NCBI GenBank assembly: GCA_027658995.1
Contig: JAQDQK010000010.1
Location: forward strand, 1-64,000
Source of the DNA: Propionibacteriaceae bacterium AM104-82
GTDB taxonomy: Bacteria > Actinomycetota > Actinomycetes > Propionibacteriales > Propionibacteriaceae
Direction of reading: 5' to 3'
DNA: 64,000 nucleotides
The notes under the pieces are model-generated. The model was not told where the DNA came from, searched no databases, and was given only the letters and a program-made list of their open reading frames with translations. Numbering within the stretch: position 1 is the stretch's first letter; the number at the start of each line of letters is the position of its first letter. Below are positions 42,237 to 61,558 of the stretch, in pieces. The position numbers were made by a program, and so were the translations under genes.

Positions 42237-42242
42237 TCACCC

Positions 42243-45093: not shown

Positions 45094-47744
45094 CGACCCC
45101 CAAGGCGATGTGGATCGTCCCCCACACCCACTGGGACCGTGAGTGGTACGAACCCCACGACGTCTTCCGAGCCCGCCTCGTGGCGATGCTCGACGGCCTG
45201 CTCTCCCTGCTCGAGCGTGAACCCGGATACAAGTTCACGCTCGACGGGCAGAGCGCCGCCATCGACGACTACCTGGAGATCCGCCCGGAGGAGGCCGACC
45301 GGGTCCGCGCCGCCGTGGCGCGCGGGCAACTGGCGCTCGGCCCGTTCCAGATCCTGCTCGACGAGTTCTGCTGCGACGGCGAGACCATCGTGCGCAACCT
45401 GGAGCACGGGATCGCCTCGGCCCGCCGCCTCGGCCGCGAGATGCGCGTCGGCTACCTGCCCGACATGTTCGGCCACGCGGCCCAGACCCCGCAGATCCTG
45501 CGCGGCTTCGGCATCGCGGACGCGTCGCTGTGGCGCGGCGTGCCCGCCTCCGTCGACAAGCACGCCTTCTCGTGGGAGGGACTGGACGGCAGCGCCGTGC
45601 GGGTCGAGTACCTGTGGGACGGCTACGGCAGCGCGCTGAAGCTGTTCGAGCCCCTCGAGAAGCTCCCCGAGTTGATCGACGCCTACCTCGACGAGAACGC
45701 GTCCTGGTTCGACGGTGAGGCCGTCGCAGGCTGGTACGGCACCGATCACATGGCGCCGCGGGCCGACCTTGTCCAGATCCTGCGCGGCTACGGGGGCGAC
45801 GTCGAGCTGAGGCTCGGCACCGTCGACGAGGTGATCGCCTCGCGCGACCACTCCCCCGAGGCGCTCGCCAAGCTGCCGGTGGTGCGCGGCGAACTGCGCT
45901 CGCACGCCCGCGGGAACCTGCTGCCCGGCATCTTCTCCATCCGCACCAACCTCAAGGCCGCGATGGCCGCCGCCGAGCGGGGCATGGCCACGGCCGAACG
46001 CCTCGACGCTTGGGTCGGCGGGGTGTCGCGCACCGCCTTCTTCGAGCGCGGCTGGGGCCTCATCGTCGAATCGACGGCGCACGACTCGGTGACCGGATGC
46101 GGCGTCGACTCCACGGCTGACGAGGTCGAGTCGCGGCTCCGGGTCGCGGCCCAGACTGCCGACGGCGTCATCGACATCACCTCCCCTGGGCTGGCCAGCC
46201 ACGCCCCGGTCGGCTCGGTCGCCGCGTTCAACCAGAGCGGCTTCCCGCGCCAGGTGCAGGCCGAGTTGGTCGTCGAGGGCGCCCCGTCGTCCCCGTCGGT
46301 CCAGCTCCTCGAGGAACTGCCGACCGTGATCGGCGACGAGACCATCGCGTCGCGCGACCTGCCGAAGGTGGTGCGCCGCATCCACGGCCAGGAACTGTTC
46401 GGCAAGCACATCCGCTCGTGGTCCTGGGAGGGCGACGACCTGGAGTTCGTGGTGGCCGACATCACCGACGGCGACTTCGACCTCGCCGACTTCGTGGCGG
46501 TCCTCAACGACAAGATGGCCTCCTCCGATGATGACCATCCGTTCCGCGTCATCACCCGGGTCCCGCAGACCAGCCGTGTGCTGGTCGCCCGGCCCGCGGC
46601 GGGCATGTCCGCCGTCGCGCTCGGCCCCGACTCTTCCGTCGCCCCCGAGGCGCCGGTCGTGGTCTCGGCCGACCGGCTCTCCAACGGCCTCGTCGAGGCC
46701 GTCGTCGCGGAGAGTGGCACCGTCACGGTCACGGACCTGCGCACCGGGGTCACCCTCCCCGACGCGCTCCGACTCGTCGACGACGGCGACCGCGGCGACT
46801 CGTACAACTACGGCCCCGTCGAGGGCCCCGTCGACGCGCCCGCTTCCGTCGAGATCACCGTCGCGGAGCAGGGTCCGCTGCGCGGGCGCATCATCGTGCG
46901 GCGCACCTACCTGCTGCCCGTGGAGGTCGACGCGTCCGACCGGTCGCGGCGCTCCGCCGAGACCCGCGAGCAGGTCGTGGACACGCTCGTCGAGTTGCGC
47001 GCGGGCGAGCCGTTCCTGCGCGTCACCGTCTCGCTGACCAACCAGGTCGGCGACCACCGGTTGCGCGTCATGGTGCCGACCCTGCGGCAGGGCGTCACGG
47101 AGTCGGCGTCGGCCGGCCAGTACGGCCTGACGGTGCGCGGCCGCACCGCGGAGGGCGGCTGGGGCGAGTTCCCGCTGCCGACCTTCCCCGCGACCCGGTT
47201 CGTCACCGCGGGCGACGTCGGCGTCCTCGTCGACAAGCTTGTCGAGTACGAGGTGGTCGACGGCGAGGGCACCGACGACATCGCGCTGACGGTGCTGCGC
47301 AGCGTCGGGATGATGAGCGTCAACGTGCATCCGCTGCGCGACGAGCCAGCCGGCTCGCAGTTGCCCGTCCCGGGCGCGCAGTACCTGGGCAGGCACGTCG
47401 AGTGCTCGTTCGCGATCGACCTCGACCCCGATCGCCTCGTCGAACACAGCGACGTCTTCCGCCTTGACCCGGTGACCGTTCCGGGCCGCGGCGGGGAGCC
47501 GGCCGAGCCTGCCGTGGCGTTCGAGACGACCGGTCAGGTCGCGCTCGAGTCGCTGCGTCGGGTCCCCGGCGGCGTCGAGGCGCGGTTGGTCAACTACGCC
47601 CCGGTCGCCCGGCCGCTCGCCGTCGAGGCAGAAGGAGACTGGGTGCTCACGGACCTGTCGGGCGCGGTCGTCTCGGGTCCGGTCGACCTGGCCGCGCTCG
47701 AGGTCGGCGCAGGACAGATCATCACGCTACGGAGGGAGTCCTGA
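45090..47744 (+). CDS. Alpha-mannosidase, glycoside hydrolase family 38
   Basis: 884 residues, cytosolic (no signal peptide). The N-terminal catalytic domain has the zinc motif PHTHWDREWYEP (about 10-21), the nucleophile segment YLPDMFGHAAQTPQILRGFG (about 126-145) and WYGTDHMAPRADL. The middle helical domain holds RGWGLIVESTAHDSVTGCGVDSTADEV, which includes the conserved HDSVTG. C-terminal beta domains follow. It hydrolyses alpha-mannosides taken up by the preceding importer; mannosylglycerate-type or glycan-derived substrates are both possible. Overlaps on both sides (4 bp upstream, 1 bp downstream) place it firmly in the operon. Confidence 0.93.
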   Translation: MTTPKAMWIVPHTHWDREWYEPHDVFRARLVAMLDGLLSLLEREPGYKFTLDGQSAAIDDYLEIRPEEADRVRAAVARGQLALGPFQILLDEFCCDGETIVRNLEHGIASARRLGREMRVGYLPDMFGHAAQTPQILRGFGIADASLWRGVPASVDKHAFSWEGLDGSAVRVEYLWDGYGSALKLFEPLEKLPELIDAYLDENASWFDGEAVAGWYGTDHMAPRADLVQILRGYGGDVELRLGTVDEVIASRDHSPEALAKLPVVRGELRSHARGNLLPGIFSIRTNLKAAMAAAERGMATAERLDAWVGGVSRTAFFERGWGLIVESTAHDSVTGCGVDSTADEVESRLRVAAQTADGVIDITSPGLASHAPVGSVAAFNQSGFPRQVQAELVVEGAPSSPSVQLLEELPTVIGDETIASRDLPKVVRRIHGQELFGKHIRSWSWEGDDLEFVVADITDGDFDLADFVAVLNDKMASSDDDHPFRVITRVPQTSRVLVARPAAGMSAVALGPDSSVAPEAPVVVSADRLSNGLVEAVVAESGTVTVTDLRTGVTLPDALRLVDDGDRGDSYNYGPVEGPVDAPASVEITVAEQGPLRGRIIVRRTYLLPVEVDASDRSRRSAETREQVVDTLVELRAGEPFLRVTVSLTNQVGDHRLRVMVPTLRQGVTESASAGQYGLTVRGRTAEGGWGEFPLPTFPATRFVTAGDVGVLVDKLVEYEVVDGEGTDDIALTVLRSVGMMSVNVHPLRDEPAGSQLPVPGAQYLGRHVECSFAIDLDPDRLVEHSDVFRLDPVTVPGRGGEPAEPAVAFETTGQVALESLRRVPGGVEARLVNYAPVARPLAVEAEGDWVLTDLSGAVVSGPVDLAALEVGAGQIITLRRES

Positions 47745-49003
47745 TGCGACACACCGAGTCGCGACACGTCACGCTCGCGGACCAGGCGTCCGACCGCTAT
47801 CCGCGGTTCGGTTTCGACCTGCCGGAGGGCGTGACCAGCTTCGAGGTGACGCTCGAGGTGGAGGGCGGCCCGGACGCCCGGATCGACCTCGGCTGCGAGG
47901 GGCCGACGGCCTGGCGCGGCTGGTCGGGCGGCGCACGGCGCACGTTCGTGGTCGCGGAGGACGACGCGACCCCCGGCTACCTGCCGGGCGACGTGGTCCC
48001 CGGCCGCTGGGACGTCATCCTCGGCCTGCACACGCTGCCCGCGGCGGGCGCGGACGTGAAGGTCACCGTCGAGATGCCCGCGATCAACCGGCCCGACCAC
48101 GGGCCCGTCGAGGAACCCGTCGGACGGGAGGCCCGCGGCAGCGACCGCGACCTGCCCGCGCCGGCAGGCATGCGGTGGTACGCGGGCGACACGCACGCGC
48201 ACACGCTGCACTCCGACGGGGCGCTCAGCCTCTGGGAGTTGGCCAACGAGGGGGTGCGCTCCGGCCTGGACTTCCTGTGCGTCACCGACCACAACACCAC
48301 CAGCCACCACGCGCACCTCGGGCCCGTCGGGCGCCGCCACGGCATCACGCTGGTGCCGGGCCAGGAGGTGACCACCGCTCGCGGTCACTCCAACGCGTTC
48401 GGAGACATCGGCTTCGTCGACTTCCGCCTTCCCGCCCAGGAGTGGGCCGACGTGGTCGCGGAGCGGGGCGGCCTCATGTCGATCAACCACCCGGTCTCGG
48501 GCGACTGCTCGTGGCTGCACGAGATGCAGCGCGAGCCAGGCGGGGTCGAGTTGTACCACTCGACCTGGTACGAGGAGCCGATCTCCACGTCGGCGCTCGC
48601 CTGGTTCCGTCGCTGGCGGCGCGACGTCGTCCTGCTCGGCGGCGGCGACTTCCACAAGCGGGACACGCCGCTCAGGCCCGGCCTGCCGACCACCTGGGTC
48701 GCGGCCGAGGAGGACAGCGCCGGGGCGATCCTGGACGCGATGCGCGCAGGTCGCACCACCGTCACGGCGGGCGCGCATTTCGTCAGCCCGGACGAGGCGC
48801 GTCCCTCGCTGGACACCGCGCCGATCCTGATCCGGCAGGGCGACGACCTGCTCGCCCTCGCGGCAAAGGGCCTGATTCTGGTCTCCGGCTCGGGTCGCCG
48901 ACTGGTGCTCGACTCCGACGCCCAGAGCGTCGCTGCACCCCTCGAGGACGGGCCGTACCGTCTCGAGGACTCGCAACGAGCGGTCCTGGCCCTTTCGGCC
49001 TGA
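47744..49003 (+). CDS. CehA/McbA-type PHP-domain metallohydrolase (module C)
   Basis: 419 residues. The N-terminal ~140 residues form a beta-rich domain and the C-terminal domain is PHP-type: YAGDTHAHTLHSDGALS (HxH), LDFLCVTDHNTTSHHAH (DH), VPGQEVTTARGHSNAFG (E, H), SINHPVSGDCSW, and LGGGDFHKRDTP (DxH). Characterised CehA/McbA-family members hydrolyse esters and phosphoesters. Association with a GH38 gene suggests removal of an ester or phosphodiester substituent from a mannoside, which is inference. The start overlaps the GH38 stop by 1 bp. Confidence 0.85.
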   Translation: MRHTESRHVTLADQASDRYPRFGFDLPEGVTSFEVTLEVEGGPDARIDLGCEGPTAWRGWSGGARRTFVVAEDDATPGYLPGDVVPGRWDVILGLHTLPAAGADVKVTVEMPAINRPDHGPVEEPVGREARGSDRDLPAPAGMRWYAGDTHAHTLHSDGALSLWELANEGVRSGLDFLCVTDHNTTSHHAHLGPVGRRHGITLVPGQEVTTARGHSNAFGDIGFVDFRLPAQEWADVVAERGGLMSINHPVSGDCSWLHEMQREPGGVELYHSTWYEEPISTSALAWFRRWRRDVVLLGGGDFHKRDTPLRPGLPTTWVAAEEDSAGAILDAMRAGRTTVTAGAHFVSPDEARPSLDTAPILIRQGDDLLALAAKGLILVSGSGRRLVLDSDAQSVAAPLEDGPYRLEDSQRAVLALSA

Positions 49004-49114: not shown

Positions 49115-50221
49115 TCACACGCCGGTAATCTCGCTGATCTTCACCTTGCGGTCCTCCCGGAGCGACAAGGTGCACGCATCGGCCGTAGCGATAGCCGCTG
49201 TCGCTGCTGACCCGTCCGACAGGGCCGCAAACTCCTCGCTGGGCGAAGCGCCATTCATCAGCCCATGAAAGTAGGTCAATTCATCCTCGATGATCCCCCT
49301 GAGCCACAGGGGAGGCCGCTTCTCGGGCGTACCGTACTGGACGGCACCGTCTGTCGAGGATCCCGCGTAGATCGCCGTCCGGTTGGCATCCTCTTCCTCG
49401 TTGCGGTGAAGCAGGAACTGTTCAGTCCTTCCCCCTACGCGCAGCGTGACCCCAGCCTCCTGCAGGTCGATCCGGATGGCGCCGAGGGAACCCTGGATGA
49501 GTACATAGTGCTCCGGCCAGCGGAACGCCGACCCGTACTCGATCGCTGCGAACCGGTTGTCCGGGAACTGCAGCGTGATGATGAGCATGTCATCCTCGTC
49601 GCCGAAGTCCTCACCGCTGTGGGCCACGTTCCCGCCGACCATTGTGGCCTGTGTAGCGGGTCCGAGCAGGGACTGCACGAAGTCCAACTCGTGAATGTGG
49701 TGGTAGAGATGGCCGCCCGACAGCTCTCGCATCTTCTTCCAGCTAATCGCCTGCTGCACATCCTCCCAGCCATTACGGATTGCTCGGACGAACAACACCT
49801 CACCGATTGCCCCCTCGTTGATGAGTTGCTTGGAACGTCGGATGCCCGCCATGAAGTTCATGACGTGGCCGGCCATGAAGTTGACGCCTGCCTCCCGGGC
49901 CGTGCTCACCATCTCGGCGCACTGATCGTATTTGAGCGCGATTGGCTTCTCGCAGAAGACATCCTTGCCTGCACGCGCAGCCGCCAACACCGGGGCATAG
50001 TGCTCCCCGTTCGGGGATGCCACGATCACCGCATCGATGTCCTGCCTGGCGACCAGTGCCTCCACGCTGGGCTCCGAGTCAGCGCCGATCTCGGCAGCGA
50101 CAGCCGCGGCATTCGCCGGGTCGTAGATCGCCACTACCTCAGCGTCTGGGAGTTCACTGAGGAAGCGCGCCTGTTCGGCACCGAAGTAGCCTGTCCCGAT
50201 CACGCCGTACTTGATGGTCAC
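49115..50221 (-). CDS. nanX: NanX/NanOx-like Gfo/Idh oxidoreductase (2,7-anhydro-sialic acid to sialic acid)
   Basis: 368 residues from GTG 50221, with AAGGAG 6 nt upstream. The sequence follows the pattern I know for E. coli NanX (YjhC) and Ruminococcus gnavus NanOx: YGVIGTGYFGAEQARFL, DVFCEKPIALKYDQC, GVNFMAGHVMNF, NGWEDVQQAISWKKMRELSG, GHLYHHIHELD, EDDMLIITLQFP, RWPEHYVLI and the C-terminal DRKVKISEI. Those enzymes convert 2,7-anhydro-Neu5Ac to Neu5Ac through an NAD-dependent redox cycle. The cluster carries the matching downstream genes (lyase, NanE, NanK). It is the last gene of the importer operon. Substrate is inferred from family resemblance. Confidence 0.8.
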   Translation of the reverse strand: MTIKYGVIGTGYFGAEQARFLSELPDAEVVAIYDPANAAAVAAEIGADSEPSVEALVARQDIDAVIVASPNGEHYAPVLAAARAGKDVFCEKPIALKYDQCAEMVSTAREAGVNFMAGHVMNFMAGIRRSKQLINEGAIGEVLFVRAIRNGWEDVQQAISWKKMRELSGGHLYHHIHELDFVQSLLGPATQATMVGGNVAHSGEDFGDEDDMLIITLQFPDNRFAAIEYGSAFRWPEHYVLIQGSLGAIRIDLQEAGVTLRVGGRTEQFLLHRNEEEDANRTAIYAGSSTDGAVQYGTPEKRPPLWLRGIIEDELTYFHGLMNGASPSEEFAALSDGSAATAAIATADACTLSLREDRKVKISEITGV

Positions 50222-50235
50222 GTTATTCTCCTTGA

Positions 50236-51072
50236 TCATTTGACCGACCCCTCGGAGAGGCCGGCAGCAATGTACTTCTGGATGAGGGTGAAGATGATTA
50301 CCGACGGAAGTACCACGCAGGTAGCAGCGGCCATGAGTGCGCCCCAATCGAGCACCTCAGTTCCGGTGAGCGAGTACAGGGCCACCGCCACAGGCATCTT
50401 CGATGATTCATTGATGAAGAGCAGAGCGTAGAGAAACTCGTTGAAAGAGTTGATGAAGGTATAGATGGTGGTCGCAACGATCCCTGGCGTCACGATCGGG
50501 GATGCGATCCTCAGGAAGATCCTGAATCGTCCTGCGCCATCAACTGCCGCCGCCTCTTCGATTCCGATGGGCACCGTCTGATAGAAGCCGACGAGCATCC
50601 ACAGCGCATACGGCACGGAGAACGACAGATACACCAGGATCAACCCTACGTAGGAATTGACCAGTCCGGTCTTGACCATCATCACCGTATAGGGAACCGC
50701 GAGCAAGATCGGCGGAAACATGTAGCTGGTGATCAGTACCCGCGTCATCTTTCGGCCGAAGTTGGGAAAGTACCGGACGATGCCGTACGCACCGAGACAA
50801 CTGATCACGATCGTGATGGCGGTCGACACGGTTGAGATAATCAGCGAATTCTTGAGATTTGTCAGGAACCCCATTTCGCCGAGCACCTTCGAGTAGTTCT
50901 CGAGCGTAAACTGCTGAGGGATGAGGGTAGTGGGATGCGAAGCTAGATCGGCTCCAGTCTTAAACGAAGAGATCACGATCCACAACAGAGGAAACACGAA
51001 CACGACACTCACCAACGTCAGGAAGGCGTAGATGAGGAAGGTCAGAACTTTGGACTTACCAACGGTGTTCAT
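50236..51072 (-). CDS. Sugar ABC transporter permease, MalG type (module D)
   Basis: 278 residues, six helices. The EAA loop is IGIEEAAAVDGAGRFRIFLRIASP (about 170-193). Codon usage is less GC-rich than in module C, as in the rest of this operon. It lies 3 bp after the upstream permease and 14 bp before nanX. Probably imports 2,7-anhydro-sialic acid or sialic acid with its partner. Confidence 0.9.
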   Translation of the reverse strand: MNTVGKSKVLTFLIYAFLTLVSVVFVFPLLWIVISSFKTGADLASHPTTLIPQQFTLENYSKVLGEMGFLTNLKNSLIISTVSTAITIVISCLGAYGIVRYFPNFGRKMTRVLITSYMFPPILLAVPYTVMMVKTGLVNSYVGLILVYLSFSVPYALWMLVGFYQTVPIGIEEAAAVDGAGRFRIFLRIASPIVTPGIVATTIYTFINSFNEFLYALLFINESSKMPVAVALYSLTGTEVLDWGALMAAATCVVLPSVIIFTLIQKYIAAGLSEGSVK

Positions 51073-51075
51073 CGG

Positions 51076-52014
51076 TTACGAATCCTCCTTTTCCCAGCGT
51101 GAGATAAGGCGGAACAGTCCGATCGCCACAAGCATCAGGAACACAAGGAGCAGGATCGTCACCGCCGAGGCCAGCCCCAGTTGTTTCAAGCCCCACCCGA
51201 CGCGGTGCGCATAGATGGGAATGGTGGTGGTGATATCACCCGGGCCGCCTCCAGTGATTAGGAACAACAGATCGAAGTTATTGAACACCCAGATCGTGCG
51301 CAATACGACCAGCAGTCCGATCACCGTGCGAATGTGATGGAGTGTGATGTGCTGAAATCGCTGCCATGTGGAAGCCCCATCCATGGTTGCGGCCTCCATC
51401 TGCTCCATCGGGATAGTCTTGAGGGCCGACAGGATATTGACCATGAACAGGGGCGCTCCGAACCAGATGTTGATTCCGAGGACCGTCCAGAACGCTGTGG
51501 TCGGGTTCGAAAGCAGCGCGACGCGACCTTCGGTAATGTGCAGATCCTGCAACATGTTGGGGATGAAACCGCTCACATCGTTGAGCAACCACTTCCACCC
51601 GAATGCGATGATGATGGCCGGAAATGCCCAAGGGACGATAAGAAGGGTTCTGTAGAGCCCGGAGAGATGGCGCACCTTGTCGAGGGCGAGCGCCAGTAGT
51701 AAGCCGAGACCGAGCTGCCCCACGATGGACGCGGAGGTCCATTTTATTGACGTGAGGAAGGCGCCCCAAAACCGGCCATCTGTCAGTAGTTTCGCGAAGT
51801 TGTCGAAGGCAACGAAATCGTAGGCCGACTTGATGAGGTTTCTATTCGTCATCGAGTAGAAGATGCTCGACCCGAGGGGGTAGACCAACAAGATGACGAC
51901 CACCAGGATCGCTGGGGCCACGAAGGCGATGCCAGCCCAGTCAAGACGGGGCCGAGGTTGGCGCTGGCCGACCCGACTCCCGTCTCGACTGCGCTTGCTC
52001 TGAATAACAGACAT
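51076..52014 (-). CDS. Sugar ABC transporter permease, MalF type (module D)
   Basis: 312 residues, six helices after a basic N-terminus (SKRSRDGSRVGQRQPRPRLDW). The EAA loop is EQMEAATMDGASTWQRFQHITL (about 206-227). It lies 11 bp after the binding-protein gene. No ATPase is encoded in this operon, so it needs a shared one. Confidence 0.9.
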   Translation of the reverse strand: MSVIQSKRSRDGSRVGQRQPRPRLDWAGIAFVAPAILVVVILLVYPLGSSIFYSMTNRNLIKSAYDFVAFDNFAKLLTDGRFWGAFLTSIKWTSASIVGQLGLGLLLALALDKVRHLSGLYRTLLIVPWAFPAIIIAFGWKWLLNDVSGFIPNMLQDLHITEGRVALLSNPTTAFWTVLGINIWFGAPLFMVNILSALKTIPMEQMEAATMDGASTWQRFQHITLHHIRTVIGLLVVLRTIWVFNNFDLLFLITGGGPGDITTTIPIYAHRVGWGLKQLGLASAVTILLLVFLMLVAIGLFRLISRWEKEDS

Positions 52015-52025
52015 GGGTCGATCCG

Positions 52026-53380
52026 CTACGCGCCTGCTGCTTCGAACATCTCGTTGAGTTGCTTCTCAGCCGAGGCGGCTGCCTCCTCAACGGGGGTCCC
52101 GTTCAGCACGATATCCTGCAGCATCGACTCAACCACCCCCTGGTTCACCAGAATTCCCGCCTGAATGTTGGGCCCATCGTTCATGCCGATGGCGGTGGCC
52201 ATGGGGATGACCTCATTGATCACCTCGTAGCTCTTCATGTTTGCCTTGATGGTGGGATCAGCGAGGAATGCCGGGTTCTCGACGATGTCCTTCAGAACCG
52301 GCATCATGCCGACCGGCACAGAGTGCAGGAACCGGATGTAGTCATCGTCCTGATAGAGCGTCTCGAGGAACGCCTTCGCCTCCTCCTGATGCTCAGAGTT
52401 CTTCCAGATGACCATCGGCTGGTAGCTCGACTCCGCCCCGTAGATCGGATCGTCCGCACTCATTCGCGGGAGGGGCGCGGCCTCGATCTCAGGGAGGAGG
52501 TCCGGGGAAGTCGCCGCGACGCCAGAGATCTGAAACCCACTGTTGAAGTCGAATGCGGTCTTGCCCTGGTAATAGAGCGTGGCCTGGTCAAGAACATTGA
52601 AGTTGATCGACCCCTCCGGCGAGACGGCCTTGTACATATCCACCCAGTACTTGATTCCGTCGATGGCAGCCGGGCTCGTCAGGTTGGCCTTGCCGTCCTT
52701 CAGCAGGTTGTCACCGGCGGATCGCACGTAGTAGTTCAGGAACCGAACACCCATCGTGTCATTGGAACCGAACGGGACAGACAGCCCGTACAACTGCGGT
52801 GTGGCGACCTTCTCCGCCGTAGCTCGCAGTTCTTCCCAGGTCTTGGGGACCTCAAGGCCGTTCTCCTTGAGCACATCCTTCCGGTACCACATCACCTGAG
52901 CGTGGGAGTAGAGAGGAACCGAGTAGGAGACGCCGTCCTTCTGCCCCTCCAGCAACGCAGCCTCATAGAACCGGTCACGCCCGATTGAGTCGATCACATC
53001 GTCGACAGGAGCCAGGGCCTCAGCATCAATCATCTCGACGACGTGGTAGGGAAGGGCTGAGGAGATGTCGGGCACCTGGCCCGACGCAAGACCTGTGGTC
53101 CACTTGGTGTAGAACTCGGCCCAGGAGAAGTTCTCGATCGTGATGGACACTTCCGGGTTGTCCTTCATGAACCGGTCGGCCATCTCCTTGAGGTACTCGG
53201 CGCGAGGACCCTGGGTGTAGCTCGACCAGAACACGAGGTCGCCAGCCATCACACCGTCGCCCGCCTGGGATTCCGGTGTTTTTTCACTCTCGCCGCTGCC
53301 GCCACACGCGGCCAGCAGGTTGCCGCTGTCATGCCCGCGACTGCGATCATGAAGCGCTTGTAGAAGTTGGAACGGCCCAT
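52026..53380 (-). pseudogene. Solute-binding lipoprotein of module D, frameshifted in the signal peptide
   Basis: The mature part is intact: lipobox LLAACGGSG, then a family-1 solute-binding protein (LVFWSSYTQGPRAEYLKEMADRF, YSVPLYSHAQVMWYRKDVL, PKTWEELRATAEKV, TAFDFNSGFQISG). The natural start is ATG 53380, 7 nt after AAGGAG, giving MGRSNFYKRFMIAVAGMTAA, a proper signal-peptide start. Between 53321 and 53318 the frame shifts by one missing (or two extra) bases before LLAAC. Reading instead from ATG 53399 keeps the frame open (457 residues) but replaces the hydrophobic core with a polar segment and uses the ribosome site as coding. So export would fail unless this is a sequencing error or is corrected in expression. 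Confidence 0.75.
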
Positions 53381-53406
53381 CGTTGGACTCCTTCATCATT
53401 AGTTCA

Positions 53407-53457
53407 GACGTCTGACGTCTTATTACCTAGTCTTGTATGTGGCCACGCTGATGTCAA
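53407..53457 (-). promoter_or_regulatory. Promoter and GntR operator of the module D importer operon
   Basis: On the minus strand TTGACA (53457-53452), a 17-bp spacer and AAGACT (53434-53429) form a promoter. Just downstream, GACGTCTGACGTC (53407-53419) is a perfect 13-bp palindrome containing the shared module D motif ACGTCTGACGT (53408-53418). Its position over the start region fits repression by the GntR protein. Confidence 0.65.
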
Positions 53458-53466
53458 TGGGCTGCC

Positions 53467-54387
53467 TCAGGAAATGCGCGAGGCGGTCACCCGCTCGGCG
53501 ATGCGGCGAGTGACCTCACCCTCCAACGCCTTGACCGGGAAGGCCATGGCGTTCGAGTCAATGAGGCCGAGTGAGACCATTGCGGTCTTGAAGGCACCGA
53601 TCCCGGAAGCGTCTGACGAACGCCCTACGGGCTCGAAGACAATCTCGAATCCTTCGCAGATCTCGTCCTGAATCTTCCTGGCCTCAGCCCAGGCCCCGCG
53701 ACGTGCCGCCTCCCACAGCGCGGAGTACCGGGCAGGATCGACATTGGCATAGCCCGGCACGGCGCCGTCGGCACCCAGCAGCAGCATCCCGTCGACGACA
53801 CATTCGTGACCGGTGAGCACCGCCAGCGGATGTCCCGCGGCTTCGTTCGCGGCCACAAGCCTTCGGAAGGCAACATCGTTGCCGGAGGAGTCCTTCACCC
53901 CGACAATGACACCCTCACGGCCCAGCTCGATCAGCATGGCATGGTCGAGCTTGATCCCGTTGAGCCTGACCGGAACGTCGTAGGCGAAGAGCGGAACGTC
54001 CACCGCCTGCGCCACCGCACGAAAATGATCCGCGATCTCCGAGGTGTCATTCATTGCATAGAAGGGGCAGGTCACCACAAGTGCATCCACCCCCAGCGCT
54101 TCCAGTCGGCGCGCTTGGTCGATGACCCGCTCACACGTGGAGTCGATCGCGCCAGCAAGTACGGGGACCCGTCCACCCACCTTCGCGACCACATGGCGCA
54201 CCAACGCCTCTCGCTGCCCATCGCTGAGGTATGCCACCTCACCGGAAGACCCGAGCACGAACAGCCCGTGCATGCCCTTCCCGATCAAGTTGTCAGTCAC
54301 CCGATCAAGGCTCGGGTAGTCAATCTGGCCATCAGCCGTGAACGGCGTGACCACCGGCGGAATCATGCCTGTGAATCTGCTACGCAT
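53467..54387 (-). CDS. nanA: DHDPS/NAL-family lyase, probable N-acetylneuraminate lyase
   Basis: 306 residues. Class I aldolase of the DapA/NanA family: IPPVVTPFTADGQIDYPSLDRVTDNLI, the pyruvate-binding LGSSGEVAYLS, tyrosine motif FAYDVPVRLNG and the Schiff-base lysine in VIVGVKDSSGND. Local sequence alone does not separate NAL from DapA or related aldolases. The flanking nanX, nanE and nanK genes make cleavage of sialic acid to pyruvate and N-acetylmannosamine the best call. It is the first gene of a short minus-strand unit, divergent from the GntR gene, and upstream of the importer. Confidence 0.75.
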   Translation of the reverse strand: MRSRFTGMIPPVVTPFTADGQIDYPSLDRVTDNLIGKGMHGLFVLGSSGEVAYLSDGQREALVRHVVAKVGGRVPVLAGAIDSTCERVIDQARRLEALGVDALVVTCPFYAMNDTSEIADHFRAVAQAVDVPLFAYDVPVRLNGIKLDHAMLIELGREGVIVGVKDSSGNDVAFRRLVAANEAAGHPLAVLTGHECVVDGMLLLGADGAVPGYANVDPARYSALWEAARRGAWAEARKIQDEICEGFEIVFEPVGRSSDASGIGAFKTAMVSLGLIDSNAMAFPVKALEGEVTRRIAERVTASRIS

Positions 54388-54413
54388 CGGTAACTGTCCT
54401 CCTCAAGTTGGTT

Positions 54414-54436
54414 ATCAGATGTCCAATGTCTGACGT
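54414..54436. promoter_or_regulatory. GntR operator in the nanA-gntR divergent promoter
   Basis: ATGTCTGACGT (54426-54436) matches the module D consensus AYRTCTGACRT. A second, degenerate copy (ACATCTGATAA on the minus strand) lies at 54414-54424. The sites fall between nanA and the leaderless gntR, whose -10 box TAGTGT is at 54444-54449, so the regulator probably controls both genes. Confidence 0.65.
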
Positions 54437-54455
54437 ATGGCGGTAGTGTAACATC

Positions 54456-55253
54456 GTGCTCACCAACGTGCACCACCCCGCTGAGGGGATGAGCAGCAAG
54501 GCAGGGGACATGAAGCAGGACGCCGCCACACTTGCCCATTTCGCGCGACCCGCGAGTCAGGCCGCCAACGCAATCGGAGCCATCAAGGACTACATCCTCC
54601 AGAGCAACCTTCAGCCCGGAGACGCCTTGCCAACTGAGGCGCAGATGTGCGAATCGCTCGGAATCTCGCGTTCATCGGTGCGGGAGGCAATCCGGACGCT
54701 GTCAGCACTCGACATCGTCGAGGTGCGGCACGGGTACGGCATGTTCGTCGGCCGCGTCTCGATGCAGCCGATGGTCGAGTCGCTGGTCTTTCGGGGCATC
54801 TTGAATCAAGGCGACGACTTCCGAGTGCTGAACGAGATCGTCGAGGTTCGGCAGGCACTCGACCTTGCCTTCGCGCCGGCAGTCGTCGCCGCCTGGGATG
54901 GGCGTCGCGACGAAGCTCTCCACGCCGCAGTGGCTGAGATGCGAGACCTCGCTCTGAACGGAGAACCATTCCCGGAGCAGGACCGCTTCTTCCACTCCAA
55001 CCTGCTGGCCCCCCTCGGCAACGTCTTGTTCGTGCAACTGACCGAGGCGTTCTGGGATATCCACACACTGACCGCTCCCCGGCTCGGAGTACTTCACCCC
55101 GAGGACATCTCGATAACGGCCCAGGCGCACGGTGACATGCTTGCAGCCGCTGAGGCGGGCAAGGTCGATGCGTACCAGAGTGCGGTGCGTGAGCACTACG
55201 CGCCTCTGATCCGCAACCTAGCGATCGCGCGCGAGGCGCGGCGGTCGGGCTAA
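54456..55253 (+). CDS. GntR-family (FadR subfamily, FCD domain) regulator of module D
   Basis: 265 residues from GTG 54456. Winged HTH: AIKDYILQSNLQPGDALPTEAQMCESLGISRSSVREAIRTLSALDIVEVRHGYGMFVG. The C-terminal FCD effector domain contains EIVEVRQALDLAFAPAVV, the metal-site type DRFFHSNLLAPLGN and HGDMLAAAEAGKVDAYQSAVREHY. GTG 54456 lies 6 nt after TAGTGT, so it looks leaderless; ATG 54489 or 54510 are alternative starts. Three matching operators occur at module D transcription units. It converges with nanE with a 3-bp overlap. Confidence 0.88.
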   Translation: MLTNVHHPAEGMSSKAGDMKQDAATLAHFARPASQAANAIGAIKDYILQSNLQPGDALPTEAQMCESLGISRSSVREAIRTLSALDIVEVRHGYGMFVGRVSMQPMVESLVFRGILNQGDDFRVLNEIVEVRQALDLAFAPAVVAAWDGRRDEALHAAVAEMRDLALNGEPFPEQDRFFHSNLLAPLGNVLFVQLTEAFWDIHTLTAPRLGVLHPEDISITAQAHGDMLAAAEAGKVDAYQSAVREHYAPLIRNLAIAREARRSG

Positions 55254-55927
55254 CCAGTCAGGCGCTCCGCGAACCATGTGGTGATCGTGCTCGGGTGTGT
55301 GATCGCGGTCCCGACCACAACAGCGAAAGCACCAGCCTTTAGGGCGTCAGCGGCTTCCTCCGGGGTGTGGATTCGCCCCTCTGCCACGACGCGGGCGGCG
55401 GGGATGGCAGCCACGATGTCACGAACGAGGCTCAGGTCTGGGCCCTCCGTCTTCGGCCGCGCATCGGTGTACCCCGCAAGGGTGGTTCCGATGAGATCCG
55501 CACCAGCCTCGTGGGCGGCGCACGCCGAGTCGACGCTGTCACAATCCGCCATGATGATCACCTCGTGAGACTCCCTCAGCCTGGCAACGGTCTGCGCGAA
55601 GCTCAGGCCATCCGGGCGCCGCCGAAGCGTCCCATCGAGCGCCACAATATCCGCCCCGGCGTCTGCCGCCTCCCGGGCCAGCTTGAGCGTCGGGGTGATG
55701 AAGACACCGGTCTTTCCTTCCTTGACCAGGCCAATGACGGGCACATCGACGGCCCTCACCGTCGCACGGATGTCTTCGAGCCCTTGGACCCGCACAGCGC
55801 CGGCTCCCCCATTGACCACCGACTCGGCCATCCTCGCCATGATGTCCGGCTGTCGGAGCGGCTCCCCCGGGTAGGCCTGGCACGAAACGATCAGGGCGCC
55901 CTTCATTCCGTCGATCGAAAAACTCAT
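55250..55927 (-). CDS. nanE: N-acetylmannosamine-6-phosphate 2-epimerase
   Basis: 225 residues, TIM barrel. Converts ManNAc-6-P to GlcNAc-6-P. Family motifs: KGALIVSCQAYPGEPLRQPDIMARMAESVVNGGAGAVRVQG (start region), VPVIGLVKEGKTGVFITPTL, ADIVALDGTLRRRPDG, IIMADCDSVDSACAAHEAGADLIGTTLAGYT and VVAEGRIHTPEEAADALKAGAFAVVVGTAITHP. ATG 55927 overlaps the nanK stop by 4 bp (ATGA), so the two are translated together. Confidence 0.95.
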   Translation of the reverse strand: MSFSIDGMKGALIVSCQAYPGEPLRQPDIMARMAESVVNGGAGAVRVQGLEDIRATVRAVDVPVIGLVKEGKTGVFITPTLKLAREAADAGADIVALDGTLRRRPDGLSFAQTVARLRESHEVIIMADCDSVDSACAAHEAGADLIGTTLAGYTDARPKTEGPDLSLVRDIVAAIPAARVVAEGRIHTPEEAADALKAGAFAVVVGTAITHPSTITTWFAERLTG

Positions 55928-56835
55928 CGGGAGTCCTCCTGGTCCGCGAACACCTTGGCGCCGATCAGCGCGGCGTTCGGCAAGTTTGAGATTGCAATGG
56001 GCATATCGCGCGCTGCATCCATCGCGGCGGCGTCAAATCCTCGCCTCAGGGCATCCCGCCAAGGTTCGGCAGCATGCGTCACGGACCCTGACAGCGAGAC
56101 AACTTCCGGGTCGCACGCGTTGACGAGACCCGCAAGAGCCCGCCCAAGCGCATGTCCAGCGACTGCCAGCACATGGCGCGCCACAGAACTTCCAGGCTCT
56201 TCACGCCGTGCCAGTTCGGAGATTTGAGAACCAGAAAGGCGACGGCCGGTCAGCGAAGCAAATCTGCCGACGATGGCGGAGCCTGAAGCGACCGACTCGA
56301 GATGGCCTCGTCGTCCACAACTGCACAGCAGGCCACTAGCTGCCGCCGAGTCGATATGTCCAACATGTCCGGCCATGTTCCTGGCACCGAACATGACTCG
56401 ACCACCCACGACCAGCCCGCCGCCGACACCGGTCCCCACCCCTACAAGCAGAAGACTGCCGACTTCCCCGCCGAGCGAGGCATATTCTCCGAGGGCGTGC
56501 GCGTGCACATCGTTCACCACGTGCACCGGAAGCGAAAGCCGATCTCCGAGCTCTTCACGGAGCCGGGTGCCTGCCCACCCTGGGAGCAGGTCGGTCGCCG
56601 AAGCGATGGAACCGGATACCGGGTCGACCACTCCCGCCGACGCGACTGCCAACCGCACGTCTCGACCAGCCGGGGTGGCCCGTCTCACCAAGGCAACGGC
56701 GGCCTCGAGGATAGCCTCTGGCCCTTCAGCCGAAGGTGTCGGCACGGACACCACGCCCATGGCGTCCAGACCGCTGATCACGCCGCAGGCCATCTTTGTC
56801 CCGCCGATGTCCAGGGCCATCGTCACGCATTCCAT
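55924..56835 (-). CDS. nanK: ROK-family kinase, probable N-acetylmannosamine kinase
   Basis: 303 residues from ATG 56835. ATP-site ALDIGGTKMACGV, then ASAGVVDPVSGSIASATDLLPGWAGTRL, VHVVNDVHAHALGEY, and LLLVGVGTGVGGGLV. The zinc signature is GHVGHID...CSCGRRGHLE, with His in place of the third Cys as in many actinobacterial members. Phosphorylates ManNAc before NanE acts. The frame is open to 56895, but that would run through the operator. It heads a two-gene unit with nanE. Confidence 0.88.
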   Translation of the reverse strand: MECVTMALDIGGTKMACGVISGLDAMGVVSVPTPSAEGPEAILEAAVALVRRATPAGRDVRLAVASAGVVDPVSGSIASATDLLPGWAGTRLREELGDRLSLPVHVVNDVHAHALGEYASLGGEVGSLLLVGVGTGVGGGLVVGGRVMFGARNMAGHVGHIDSAAASGLLCSCGRRGHLESVASGSAIVGRFASLTGRRLSGSQISELARREEPGSSVARHVLAVAGHALGRALAGLVNACDPEVVSLSGSVTHAAEPWRDALRRGFDAAAMDAARDMPIAISNLPNAALIGAKVFADQEDSR

Positions 56836-56854
56836 GAGACCACCAATCCATCGA

Positions 56855-56865
56855 ACATCTGACAT
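56855..56865. promoter_or_regulatory. GntR operator between nanK and the FAH-family gene
   Basis: ACATCTGACAT is a symmetrical 11-mer (central T) matching the module D consensus. It lies 20 bp before nanK and 10 bp before the FAH-family gene, whose likely -10 box CATCAT (56863-56868) it overlaps, so both directions can be controlled. Confidence 0.65.
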
Positions 56866-56874
56866 CATAGAACC

Positions 56875-57699
56875 ATGCCCAAGGCCCTGTCGCAACTCTC
56901 CCGATCACTCCGCCGCTACGCCCGGTTCCAGACCGACATCGGGCCCCGGAATGCGCTGGTTGACCTCTCCACACCTGACCCCGTGCTGGTGCCGCTCGAC
57001 GGCGACCCCCTGGCCGGCGCCTCACCCTCCGGAGAGCCACCGATCGCCCTTGCCGAGGCGACCCTGCTCGCGCCTGTCGACCGGGGCGCAACCATCATCG
57101 GAATCGGAGACAACTACGGGTCTCAGGCCGCGTGGTCCGAGCCGCTGCACTTCCTCAAGGCGACCAGCAGCCTCACAGGCACCGGTCACGCAGTGATCGT
57201 GCCGCGGGGAGCGGCCCCTGTGTGCGTCGAGGGCGAACTGGCGGTCGTCATCGGCGCAGAGACCCGCAACATTGATGCAGCAGCGGTCGAGTCGGTGATT
57301 TTCGGGTACACAATCGCCAACGATGTCGGCTCCCGCAGCTGGCAGGCCGCCGATCCACAGTGGACCCGAGCGAAAGGCGCAGACACGTTCTGCCCGCTTG
57401 GGCCTTGGATCACGACAGGACTGCCGTTGCGGGAAGCAGCCTCTCTGAGCCTCCGCACCTGGTTCGACGACGAGATTCGCCAGGACGGAAGCACCTCCGA
57501 CCTGATCCGTTCCGTCCCGCAACTGGTTTCGTGGCTCAGTGGGTTCATGACACTGATGCCAGGTGATGTCATCCTCACGGGGACACCGTCCGGTGCGGGA
57601 GAGGCCCCCATCGGAACATCTGTCCGCATCGCCATCGAAGGGCTCGGGGAACTCACGAACACCATCTCAGCCTCATCCGTCGTGTCGCATTCCTGCTAG
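56875..57699 (+). CDS. Fumarylacetoacetate hydrolase-family protein in the module D regulon
   Basis: 274 residues. FAH-fold hallmarks: IIGIGDNYGSQ, HFLKATSSLTG, APVCVEGELAVVIGAETRNI (first Glu pair), FGYTIANDVGSRSWQ, KGADTFCPLGPWI and the C-terminal LMPGDVILTGTPSGAG. Members hydrolyse or decarboxylate acylpyruvates and keto acids using Mg2+ or Ca2+. It is divergent from nanK and shares its operator. FAH proteins are not part of textbook sialic-acid catabolism; it might process a keto-acid side product. CATCAT lies 6 nt before ATG 56875, suggesting a leaderless mRNA. Confidence 0.85.
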   Translation: MPKALSQLSRSLRRYARFQTDIGPRNALVDLSTPDPVLVPLDGDPLAGASPSGEPPIALAEATLLAPVDRGATIIGIGDNYGSQAAWSEPLHFLKATSSLTGTGHAVIVPRGAAPVCVEGELAVVIGAETRNIDAAAVESVIFGYTIANDVGSRSWQAADPQWTRAKGADTFCPLGPWITTGLPLREAASLSLRTWFDDEIRQDGSTSDLIRSVPQLVSWLSGFMTLMPGDVILTGTPSGAGEAPIGTSVRIAIEGLGELTNTISASSVVSHSC

Positions 57700-59719: not shown

Positions 59720-60138
59720 AGCCCGAGCCAGCGGAGCAGGGCGTACCTGCCTCCGCGCGGGGCGGCGGACAGCCCTCGCAGGACCGCCAGCGCCTCGTCG
59801 GCTCGGCCGGCAGGCACCAGCGCGTGGTCGTGGTAGAAGCCGGCGAGCATGTTGCACGGCACCCCTGCGTCGGCGAGCGCCCGCGAGACGGCGGCCGTCA
59901 GGCCGACCGCCTCGAGCGAGGAATGCACCTCGAGAGTCAGCCACGCATAGCTGCCCTCGTATGACAGGCCCTCCCGATCGGCGACCGCGCGTTCGAGGAT
60001 CAGCGTGCCGGCCTCCCGTTCGACGATCCGGGCCTCGGCCTCGACGGGGCGCGAGGTCGTCACGTAGACGAACTCCCCCGGTCGCCGCGTCGGGCGGAGG
60101 TCGTTCAGAAGTGTGTCGAGATCGCTCTGGCCAGCCAC
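59710..60138 (-). CDS. ACT-domain-containing protein
   Basis: 142 residues of the tandem-ACT-like family seen beside unrelated genes: [30 protein letters not shown], then [52 protein letters not shown] in the C-terminal half. Likely binds an amino acid; no enzyme domain is attached. GTG 60138 lies exactly 6 nt after TAGGGT (minus strand, 60150-60145) without a Shine-Dalgarno, so it is leaderless. It is divergent from the membrane protein at 60188, 49 bp away. Confidence 0.85.
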
Positions 60139-60187
60139 GCCTTCACCCTACGGGCACTGGTCGGCACCAGACCTGTACGCTCTCCTC

Positions 60188-61414
60188 GTGGACAGCATGA
60201 CTTCCGGGACATCGCCTCGGAGCGCGAAAGCGGGCATTTGGGTTCGATCCCTATTGTTCGGCATAGTGGCGACGCTGTGCACTCGCAGCCTGTTTGCAGT
60301 TATTTACGATTTCGGCCCTCTATTCTCGGACCTTCCGCTCCACGTCCAATTGCTCATCGACAGCAAGGCGAAGGATCTGCAACTGGGCTACAGCTCCTAC
60401 TATGCGCTGCTCGATATCATCTCGGGGCAATCGCTTGGCATCGCTGATCTGCGGACAGCTACCGTAACGCTTCTTGCGACCGCGACAGGGCTTCGCGGGG
60501 CAGTGGCCTACTTGGTAATGGAACTGGCCGGGGCACGGTTCTGGCTCGCGGGAGTCATCTCGTCGGCCATCATCGTCATGGCACCACTCGCGCTCCCCGG
60601 CGGCGGCGATCTCGTTTATCTGGGGAAGTTCTCGCCTTCGATTTGGCACAATAGTACGACGATTGTGGCTTTGCCGTTTTGCTTAGCCCTATTTCTCTTC
60701 CTGGACCGATATCTGACGGGCTCCCACCCACGACCCTGGCTGCATTTCGCGGTGCCTGCTACCATCCTGCTCTGCGCGGCCGCAAAGCCCAACTACGTGC
60801 TCGCAGTCGCCCCCGCTGTGGCTCTGTGGATGTCCTGGAAGGTAGCTTCGACATCCAGACCAGACCGGCCTCGTGAGGTCCGCCGACTTGCCCTTCCAGC
60901 AGCGGTGATCGGAGTGACCTCAATCGTGGTATTGGGCTTCATGTTCTGGAGCACCTTTGGGGGCAGCGGCATCGCGATCCAGGGAAAGACTGTTTCGCTC
61001 GGCGTGCGGCCCGGGGTGGTGTGGTCAATGCTGACACCCAATCAAATCTGGTCGCTCATTGCCTCTTTCATTGCACCGGCTGCAGCCACAATCGCAGTAC
61101 GTCGACAGCGCGAGATTGGCCCCACTCTCCCTCTAGCATGGCTAACCAGCGCGATAGCAGTCACCCAGTTTGTCGTCTTCGCAGAAGTCCTGAGCGACGG
61201 GAAGGTACTCGGTCACGCGAACTGGATCTGGGGGGCGCATATGAGCACCTTCGTTCTCTACATTGTCTGCACAGCGAGTCTTGTGAAGCACTGGAAGATG
61301 GCGACCTCAGCCAAGTGGGTGGCGGTGTCGCTAGCGATACTGCAGACCGTCATAGGTGTTCTGTTCTTGTTTCTTGTCGTCAGCGGCATAGCTCCGACTC
61401 ACGTTCGATTCTAG
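60188..61414 (+). CDS. Polytopic membrane protein of unknown function, lower GC
   Basis: 408 residues from GTG 60188, which follows TACGCT (60176-60181) by 6 nt. About nine to ten transmembrane helices. The first outer loop (VIYDFGPLFSDLPLHVQLLI), followed by helices and KPNYVLAVAPAVALWMSWK, resembles GT-C-type glycosyltransferases or polymer-biosynthesis membrane proteins, but I see no diagnostic motif. Codon use is clearly less GC-biased than in its neighbours (many A/T third positions), which suggests acquisition by transfer. It lies next to tRNA-Ser(GCT), a common insertion site, though no integrase is present. Confidence 0.65.
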   Translation: MDSMTSGTSPRSAKAGIWVRSLLFGIVATLCTRSLFAVIYDFGPLFSDLPLHVQLLIDSKAKDLQLGYSSYYALLDIISGQSLGIADLRTATVTLLATATGLRGAVAYLVMELAGARFWLAGVISSAIIVMAPLALPGGGDLVYLGKFSPSIWHNSTTIVALPFCLALFLFLDRYLTGSHPRPWLHFAVPATILLCAAAKPNYVLAVAPAVALWMSWKVASTSRPDRPREVRRLALPAAVIGVTSIVVLGFMFWSTFGGSGIAIQGKTVSLGVRPGVVWSMLTPNQIWSLIASFIAPAAATIAVRRQREIGPTLPLAWLTSAIAVTQFVVFAEVLSDGKVLGHANWIWGAHMSTFVLYIVCTASLVKHWKMATSAKWVAVSLAILQTVIGVLFLFLVVSGIAPTHVRF

Positions 61415-61422
61415 GCAAACGA

Positions 61423-61454
61423 CAGCGGCGCTCCAGAGCAAACTGGAGCGCCGC
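61423..61454. terminator. Hairpin between the membrane-protein gene and tRNA-Ser
   Basis: Perfect 13-bp stem AGCGGCGCTCCAG (61423-61435) and its complement (61442-61454), loop of 6. It lies just downstream of both the plus-strand gene and the minus-strand tRNA. On the minus strand it is followed by GTCGTTTG. Confidence 0.7.
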
Positions 61455-61463
61455 TATCGACCA

Positions 61464-61558
61464 CTGGCGGAGGTGGCGGGATTTGAACCCGCGATGGGGT
61501 TGAAGCCCCAAACCCGCTTAGCAGGCGGGCGCCATAGACCGTACTAGGCGACACCTCC
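61464..61558 (-). tRNA. tRNA-Ser (GCT)
   Basis: Minus strand: acceptor GGAGGTG (61558-61552) pairs with CACCTCC. The anticodon stem-loop CCCGC-CTGCTAA-GCGGG gives anticodon GCT. A long variable arm (TTGGGGCTTCAACCCCA) and T-arm GGTTCAAATCC confirm a class II serine tRNA. The body is 92 nt (61467-61558), with CCA encoded at 61464-61466. Confidence 0.97.

What the first reader, a model, noticed from the sequence alone, without database searches (positions are those of the whole stretch)
49115..57699. A probable 2,7-anhydro-sialic acid utilisation cluster in a high-GC actinobacterium
The oxidoreductase at 49115-50221 carries the sequence pattern of NanX (YjhC) and NanOx, which convert 2,7-anhydro-Neu5Ac to Neu5Ac. 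Around it are a CUT1-type importer, a NanA-like lyase, NanK and NanE and a GntR regulator. This is the full route from scavenged 2,7-anhydro-sialic acid to GlcNAc-6-P, known best from gut Firmicutes and E. coli. No sialidase is in the window, so the organism may live on products released by other bacteria.
Basis: partly seen in the sequence, partly recalled or inferred. Interest (0 to 1): 0.82.

Follow-up and report, generated by a model that had tools for sequence, protein, structure and literature searches.

The report
Anhydro-sialic-acid cluster with extra FAH-family gene
A Tessaracoccus-like bacterium carries an acquired gene cluster for eating an unusual form of sialic acid, of a kind already described in a few related bacteria, but with one extra, unexplained enzyme gene that seems to share the cluster's genetic switch.

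Summary
The protein at 49115-50221 is a NanOx: 58% identical to R. gnavus NanOx and 54% to E. coli YjhC, far above any other solved relative, with all five mutagenised catalytic residues kept. It sits in a 2,7-anhydro-Neu5Ac to GlcNAc-6-P gene set (ST7-like ABC importer, NanA, NanK, NanE, GntR). Such clusters are in print for Actinobacteria (Beutenbergia, Ruania). The host looks like Tessaracoccus; the cluster has low GC3, as if acquired, and is a mosaic of Tessaracoccus-type NanA/GntR and an importer-NanOx module also found in Mobiluncus and Beutenbergia relatives. Corrections: the binding-protein gene is frame-shifted in its signal peptide as sequenced, and 'no sialidase' cannot be judged because the genome is not held. 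New here: the last gene (56875-57699), an FAH-family protein, shares the low GC3 and an operator-like site with nanK. It, one 78% homologue and a nan-linked copy in a second genome of the genus keep the family's metal site but lack the lid His-Glu dyad. I propose a dedicated alpha-keto-acid step in sialic acid catabolism; that function is inferred, and a chance neighbour is not excluded.

The parts
49115..50221 (-). NanOx: NAD+-dependent 2,7-anhydro-Neu5Ac / Neu5Ac2en to Neu5Ac oxidoreductase
   Evidence: 483 bits to 6z3b, 445 to 6o15, next 86; 211/366 and 196/363 identities; five catalytic residues kept
50236..51072 (-). ABC permease 2 (CUT1 type, GlcU/MalG-like)
   Evidence: PF00528; 75% to the Mobiluncus permease next to its NanOx
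51076..52014 (-). ABC permease 1 (CUT1 type)
   Evidence: PF00528; 67% to Mobiluncus L001
52026..53380 (-). Solute-binding protein (SBP_bac_1, ST7-like), frame-shifted inside the signal-peptide region as sequenced
   Evidence: PF01547; 62-69% to SBPs beside NanOx in L001 and L018-L022, 58% in Lachnospiraceae L002; signal peptide and mature part in different frames
53407..53419 (.). Operator-like site upstream of the SBP gene
   Evidence: PWM built from relatives only scores 19.0, top in the 64-kb window; pattern match
53467..54387 (-). NanA-type N-acetylneuraminate lyase (DHDPS family)
   Evidence: PF00701; best PDB 5c54/5c55, 260 bits; 68-75% to the same gene in nan loci L060-L063; below NCBIfam cut-offs
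54411..54438 (.). Operator-like tandem sites between nanA and the GntR gene
   Evidence: PWM 13.2-14.6; pattern matches
54456..55253 (+). GntR/FCD-family regulator (NanR-like by context)
   Evidence: PF00392 + PF07729; 66-71% to the GntR gene of nan loci L060-L063
55250..55927 (-). NanE, ManNAc-6-P 2-epimerase
   Evidence: NF002231 280.5 bits, cut-off 189; PF04131
55924..56835 (-). NanK-like ROK-family kinase (start moved from 56895 by my reading of the sequence)
   Evidence: PF00480; NF003461 139.5 bits, below cut-off 283
56854..56866 (.). Operator-like site in the 39-bp gap between nanK and the FAH-family gene
   Evidence: PWM 18.9; pattern match ACATCTGACATC
56875..57699 (+). FAH-superfamily protein lacking the lid His-Glu dyad; proposed sialic-acid-linked alpha-keto-acid enzyme

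Best explanation
This is a probably horizontally acquired sialic-acid catabolic island in a Tessaracoccus-like actinobacterium. A CUT1-type binding-protein importer of the ST7 kind takes up 2,7-anhydro-Neu5Ac. NanOx converts it to Neu5Ac through a C4-keto intermediate with NAD+ recycled. NanA cleaves Neu5Ac to ManNAc and pyruvate. NanK and NanE give GlcNAc-6-P. A NanR-like GntR regulator binds at three gaps, one of which lies between nanK and a divergently transcribed FAH-family gene. Shown by sequence: the gene families, the kept NanOx catalytic residues, the low GC3, the mosaic resemblance, the operator-like sites, the frame shift in the SBP gene and the missing lid dyad of the FAH protein. 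Inferred: the importer's substrate, the activity of every enzyme, the regulation, and that the FAH protein acts in the same pathway.
For: NanOx: PDB scores, residues and tree. Pathway genes. Same SBP-permease-permease-NanOx cassette in Mobiluncus (L001), G662 (L022), four loci of the family of G779 (L018-L021), G434 (L026) and a Lachnospiraceae contig (L002); it runs on into NanA and a ROK kinase in L018-L021 and NanE in L019-L021. Host: aspartokinase 93% to Tessaracoccus flavescens (one gene). Island: GC3 0.67-0.80 in 9 of 9 cluster genes vs 0.86-0.96 in 30 of 31 other genes that I picked. Operator: a PWM from six relatives, window unused, puts its 8 best window hits in three cluster gaps. 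ST7 SatXYZ of R. gnavus is specific for 2,7-anhydro-Neu5Ac and is modelled with a multitask ATPase (PMC10955332, passages).
Against: The SBP gene is frame-shifted at its signal peptide as sequenced, so uptake could be broken, or this is a contig error. No ATPase gene in the cluster. The lyase scores higher for dapA than for nanA in NCBIfam, all below cut-off, and the kinase is below the nanK cut-offs. Three cassette loci (L001, L002, L026) show no NanA, ROK or NanE match at 1e-5 in the 19-21 kb read, and L022 shows no NanA match. NagA, NagB and sialidase could not be sought in the genome. In 20 simulated 64-kb sequences the PWM gives 0-12 hits of score 14 or more (mean 3.25), with single scores up to 19.3, so the placing of the hits and not their number carries the weight. 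The pattern (3 matches vs 0.20 expected) was written after I had seen the sites.
Confidence: 0.87

Rival explanations
1. The FAH-family gene is a chance neighbour (hitchhiker on the island), with an ordinary activity such as oxaloacetate tautomerase or decarboxylase, or none.
For: A core FAH-family homologue is present in 179 of 197 genomes of the family of G002. No FAH match at 1e-5 in the 14 NanOx loci read, and none of 60 bits or more in 19 of the 20 nanE loci fetched. The 39-bp gap means that the operator-like site may serve nanK alone.
Against: Two nan-linked copies, both without the dyad, while 13 of 13 other distinct FAH genes read from loci (16 rows, three re-fetched) and 117 of 118 other database homologues keep it. 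In G424 it starts 11 bp after the GntR gene on the same strand. Conserved at 78% with P0122, metal site intact, so not simple decay. Same low GC3 as the cluster.
Confidence: 0.5
2. The FAH-family protein is a clean-up or shunt enzyme for NanOx's leaked 4-keto intermediates: open-chain 4-keto-Neu5Ac is a 2,4-dioxo acid, the substrate type of acylpyruvate hydrolases, so cleavage would give pyruvate plus N-acetylmannosaminate.
Against: The His-Glu lid dyad proposed to activate the hydrolytic water in FAHD1 (PMC8398924, passages) is absent. The second nan-linked copy lies in G424, which is not among the 5 of 198 genomes with a NanOx match and shows none in locus L060.
Confidence: 0.12
3. The island is a decaying remnant: the frame-shifted SBP shows that anhydro-sialic acid uptake has been lost.
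For: Signal peptide and mature SBP in different frames.
Against: The other eight genes are open and align over most of their length to relatives. The protein set holds this sequence from one contig only, so a small assembly error is possible and to my mind likelier.
Confidence: 0.2
4. The oxidoreductase is another Gfo/Idh/MocA enzyme (inositol or glucose-fructose type).
For: Weak NCBIfam hit to inositol 2-dehydrogenase, 117 bits against a cut-off of 355; no NanOx model is among the families listed there.
Confidence: 0.02

Closest known systems
nan clusters with nanOx and ST7 transporter of Beutenbergia cavernae and Ruania albidiflava (Li & Huang 2022, PMC8754123, passages)
   Same: SBP-permease-permease-NanOx beside NanA, NanK, NanE and a GntR/FadR-type regulator in an actinobacterium
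   Different: Gene order split into blocks here; NanA and GntR closer to loci L060-L063 (68-75%, 66-71%) than to L018-L021 (53-57%, 50-53%); extra FAH-family gene; frame-shifted SBP
R. gnavus Nan cluster (RgNanOx, SatXYZ/SAT2)
   Same: NanOx with the same catalytic set; ABC importer modelled with a multitask ATPase
   Different: R. gnavus also has an IT-sialidase (PMC10955332, passages); none among this window's scanned ORFs
E. coli yjhBC (NanX transporter, NanY/YjhC)
   Same: NanOx enzyme, 54% identical
   Different: MFS transporter instead of ABC; NanR operator of GGTATA repeats (PMC8012715, start of abstract in a search listing)
Other nan clusters of the genus of G403 (L060-L063 and others; records labelled Tessaracoccus and Arachnia)
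   Same: NanA and GntR closest to L060-L063; same operator-like motif; G424 also has a dyad-less FAH gene
   Different: L060-L063 carry other transport genes (read by eye as the ST3 kind, not scanned) and no NanOx at the locus
FAH superfamily (FAHD1, Cg1458, HpcE, L-2,4-diketo-3-deoxyrhamnonate hydrolase)
   Same: Fold and metal-site residues
   Different: Lid His/Glu replaced by Gln/Trp and lid shortened

Membership tests
NanOx (2,7-anhydro-Neu5Ac oxidoreductase) | Sequence in the RgNanOx/YjhC group, apart from other Gfo/Idh/MocA enzymes | tested here: met
   483 and 445 bits vs next 86; 44-row tree with one long-branched outgroup
NanOx (2,7-anhydro-Neu5Ac oxidoreductase) | K93, K163, H175, H176, H178 (RgNanOx) whose alanine mutants lost activity (PMC7535918, passages) | tested here: met
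   All five kept in 43 of 43 NanOx rows; outgroup has R, G, D at three
NanOx (2,7-anhydro-Neu5Ac oxidoreductase) | Converts 2,7-anhydro-Neu5Ac to Neu5Ac with NAD+ | not testable with these tools
   Needs enzyme assay
Canonical sialic acid catabolism cluster | nanA-, nanK- and nanE-like genes within 10 ORFs (criterion of PMC8754123) | tested here: met
   Within 53467-56835
Canonical sialic acid catabolism cluster | NanA and NanK above NCBIfam equivalog cut-offs | tested here: not met
   NanA 107.7 vs 281 and 90.4 vs 382 (dapA 149.8 vs 206 is higher); NanK 139.5 vs 283 and 132.3 vs 450. PMC8754123 cites actinobacterial NanA as the most divergent supercluster, so I call them NanA-like and NanK-like by context
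ST7 anhydro-sialic acid ABC transporter | SBP_bac_1 (PF01547) protein with permeases, linked to NanOx | tested here: met
   PF01547 and PF00528; SBP 58% and permeases 46-57% to the cassette beside NanOx in Lachnospiraceae L002
ST7 anhydro-sialic acid ABC transporter | Direct sequence match to R. gnavus SatXYZ | not tested
   That sequence was not fetched
ST7 anhydro-sialic acid ABC transporter | Intact exported SBP gene | tested here: not met
   Frame shift in the signal-peptide region as sequenced
ST7 anhydro-sialic acid ABC transporter | Specific uptake of 2,7-anhydro-Neu5Ac | not testable with these tools
   Needs binding or growth assay
FAH superfamily | FAA_hydrolase domain and metal-binding E-x-E...D with Lys and Gln | tested here: met
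Acylpyruvate hydrolase / oxaloacetate decarboxylase type FAH (FAHD1-like) | Lid His-Glu dyad | tested here: not met
   Q/W in window, P/W in P0122, D/Q in L060

The most novel reading that the evidence does not exclude
The dyad-less FAH-family protein is an unrecognised enzyme of actinobacterial sialic acid catabolism. With the hydrolytic lid reduced and the metal site kept, it would bind the alpha-keto acid end of the nine-carbon sugar and speed ring opening or keto-enol exchange, giving NanA the open form that it prefers. In E. coli the metalloprotein YhcH does this; its family (DUF386) was not found in 20 of 22 actinobacterial genomes searched, each of which holds a NanE or NanOx match. Support is thin: three sequences (window, P0122, G424), two of them with known nan linkage, and no proof that the two lines share an origin.
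Probability: 0.2. Interest if true: 0.62.

Novelty: new variant of a known kind. Interest (0 to 1): 0.38.

Why it matters
The main finding adds a Tessaracoccus-like member to a small published set of actinobacterial anhydro-sialic acid clusters and suggests assembly by module exchange (nan genes of one type plus an importer-NanOx module of another). The FAH-family gene is a concrete, testable candidate for an unassigned step. Most of the genomes searched lack YhcH, so how these bacteria open the Neu5Ac ring for NanA is open, and a possibly co-regulated metalloenzyme with an altered active site is a reasonable place to look.

Tried and rejected
Rejected: inositol or glucose-fructose oxidoreductase. 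Weakened: 4-keto clean-up hydrolase role for the FAH protein, because the dyad is gone and G424 has no NanOx match. Not established: that the window and G424 FAH proteins form one clade. In the 49-row tree they group with 91/85 support on long branches with a warning; with either left out, the other falls at the base of the family. Both depart from the core family at 18 of 118 core-conserved columns (7.5 expected if independent), but only 4 of the 18 have the same state and 3 of those are gaps. Two of the eight core loci gave no frame in the script (L033, L035) and were left out of that tree. Led nowhere: the FAH search of 396 genomes of the order of G779 at E 1e-69 gave no match (the tool notes that an empty answer without a control shows nothing). 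The profile search of 195 genomes of the family of G002 put only the G424 copy (458 bits) above the core homologues (306 bits and less), and that copy was itself in the profile. The class search found NanOx in 1 of 394 genomes and the order search in 7 of 396, with at most 5 candidates scored per genome, so these are lower bounds. Paper searches for sialic acid with 'fumarylacetoacetate hydrolase' and nanA, and with 'FAH family' and Neu5Ac, returned 0 papers each; only the open-licence PMC library was searched. The listing showed no paper titled for a Corynebacterium NanR operator; I did not look further.


Full report
What was checked first. The nine genes between 49115 and 57699 all have family matches: a Gfo/Idh/MocA oxidoreductase, two CUT1-type permeases, an SBP_bac_1 binding protein, a DHDPS-family lyase, a GntR/FCD regulator, NanE, a ROK kinase and an FAA_hydrolase.

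The oxidoreductase. Its best solved relatives are R. gnavus NanOx (6z3b, 483 bits) and E. coli YjhC (6o15, 445 bits). The next chain scores 86 bits. It is identical to them at 211 of 366 and 196 of 363 aligned residues. All five residues whose alanine mutants lost activity in RgNanOx (K93, K163, H175, H176, H178; PMC7535918, passages) are kept, as in 43 of 43 NanOx rows, whereas a Gfo/Idh protein elsewhere in this window (27794-28954) differs at three. The tree had that one outgroup, on a very long branch, so the scores and residues carry more weight than the tree.

The rest of the route. The lyase's best PDB matches are 5c54/5c55, named dihydrodipicolinate synthase/N-acetylneuraminate lyase, at 260 bits against 124 for the next protein (I recall that these are from Corynebacterium glutamicum, the call does not say). 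NanE passes its NCBIfam cut-off. The lyase (best NCBIfam family dapA) and the kinase do not pass theirs and rest on context. The cassette SBP-permease-permease-NanOx recurs in Mobiluncus (L001), G662 (L022), four loci of the family of G779 (L018-L021), G434 (L026) and a Lachnospiraceae contig (L002). In L018-L021 it runs on into NanA and a ROK kinase, with NanE in L019-L021 (L018 starts at a contig end); L001, L002 and L026 show no NanA, ROK or NanE match at 1e-5 in the stretch read. G779 has the chromosome length that one search gives for Beutenbergia cavernae DSM 12333 (4,669,183), and G846's contig that of Ruania gallistercoris; the family name is my inference. The R. gnavus importer of this type is specific for 2,7-anhydro-Neu5Ac and is modelled with a multitask ATPase (PMC10955332, passages), which fits the missing ATPase here.

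A defect in the sequence. The ORF start at 53399 is probably not the natural one. An ATG at 53380 behind AAGGAG opens MGRSNFYKRFMIAVAGMTAAT, a typical signal peptide, but that frame is not the frame of LLAACGGSG and the mature protein. Either the contig has a small error or the gene is damaged. I cannot tell which.

Host and origin. The aspartokinase at 3584-4855 is 93% identical to that of Tessaracoccus flavescens, and most named hits among the 120 listed are Tessaracoccus or Arachnia; only this one gene was used to place the host. GC3 is 0.67-0.80 in 9 of 9 cluster genes and 0.86-0.96 in 30 of 31 other genes that I picked from the candidates, leaving out doubtful ORFs and a few short ones (one of those, 32785-33408, has 0.84); the exception is 60113-61414 at 0.68. 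The cluster, FAH gene included, therefore looks acquired. It is a mosaic. NanA is 68-75% and GntR 66-71% identical to those of four loci of the genus of G403 (L060-L063) that carry other transport genes, against 53-57% and 50-53% in L018-L021. The genus of G403 includes records labelled Tessaracoccus and Arachnia. NanOx matches at E 1e-100 occur in 5 of 198 genomes of the family of G002, 7 of 396 of the order of G001, 1 of 394 of the class of G002 and 4 of 24 of the family of G779. NanE occurs in 22 of 39 genomes of the genus of G403.

Regulation. A weight matrix built from 22 twelve-base strings (both strands, overlapping) in the GntR-SBP gaps of six relatives, without the window, puts its eight best window hits in three gaps: upstream of SBP, between nanA and GntR, and in the 39-bp gap between nanK (start moved to 56835 by my reading) and the FAH gene. 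The pattern AYRTCTGAYRTM has three matches in the window, those three, against 0.20 expected, but I wrote it after seeing the sites. The same matrix finds sites of score 13 or more within about 200 bp of the GntR match in 19 of the 20 loci L060-L079; the twentieth (L064) shows no GntR match. Control: 20 simulated 64-kb sequences gave 0-12 hits of 14 or more (mean 3.25) and single scores up to 19.3, so only the placing is informative.

What the FAH protein may do. Three readings were weighed. A chance neighbour cannot be excluded and I hold it at 0.5: 19 of the 20 nanE loci and all 14 NanOx loci read lack the gene. Hydrolysis of leaked 4-keto intermediates is chemically attractive but is weakened by the loss of the dyad and by G424. 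The boldest reading is a sialic-acid-specific alpha-keto-acid enzyme, for instance one that opens the Neu5Ac ring, as the metalloprotein YhcH does in E. coli (PMC8141875, passages). DUF386/YhcH was found in 2 of 22 actinobacterial genomes searched, in both far from NanE on the same contig. I give that reading 0.2.

Novelty. The survey of 7,180 actinobacterial genomes reports five nan clusters with nanOx, all in free-living species, two with ST7 transporters, and a 66.67% nan-positive rate in Tessaracoccus (PMC8754123, passages). The cluster without the FAH gene is a new member of that kind. The FAH gene makes it a variant. I saw only passages of that paper, not its supplements or figures, so I cannot say whether this very locus was included. 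Two searches of open-licence papers found no paper with FAH-family terms and sialic acid terms together.

Limits. No whole genome is held for the window. Forty ORFs of the window were scanned against Pfam and no sialidase, NagA or NagB family appeared, but this says nothing about the rest of the genome. In 12 NanOx-bearing relatives, 11 have a PF13088 match; that family also matched 5 of 14 control genomes, E. coli among them, so it is not proof of a sialidase, and whether any is an IT-sialidase was not tested.

Noticed in passing
window 40824-49003: CUT1-type ABC importer with MalK-like ATPase, a GH38 alpha-mannosidase (NCBIfam mannosylglycerate hydrolase 325 bits, cut-off 1138) and a PHP-domain protein in one run on the + strand, ending about 110 bp before the nan island.
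   Followed up: partly
window 53300-53399: Signal peptide and mature part of the binding protein lie in different frames: contig error or gene damage.
   Followed up: partly
window 60113-61558: An ORF without Pfam match and with low GC3 (0.68) beside tRNA-Ser(gct): a second possible acquired piece.
   Followed up: no
L026 7815-10189 (G434): Two NanOx genes in tandem (60% and 56% to the window's) behind one ST7-like importer: possible division of labour between anhydro substrates.
   Followed up: no
L075 and L079: NanOx a few kb from a GntR gene, NanA and NanE in genomes of the genus of G403; in L075 two ORFs between NanOx and GntR look by eye like gatA and gatC, and the transport genes like the ST3 kind (no family scan run).
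   Followed up: no
L001, L018-L022, L060-L079: A shared operator-like motif (GAYRTC-N-GAYRTC type, often in tandem) beside nan GntR genes across several actinobacterial genomes.
   Followed up: partly
G436:C106:23539-25154: Two FAH-family genes in tandem, on another contig than that genome's NanOx and NanE.
   Followed up: no
22 actinobacterial genomes with NanE or NanOx matches: YhcH/DUF386 not found in 20 of 22, although NanA prefers the open form of Neu5Ac.
   Followed up: partly
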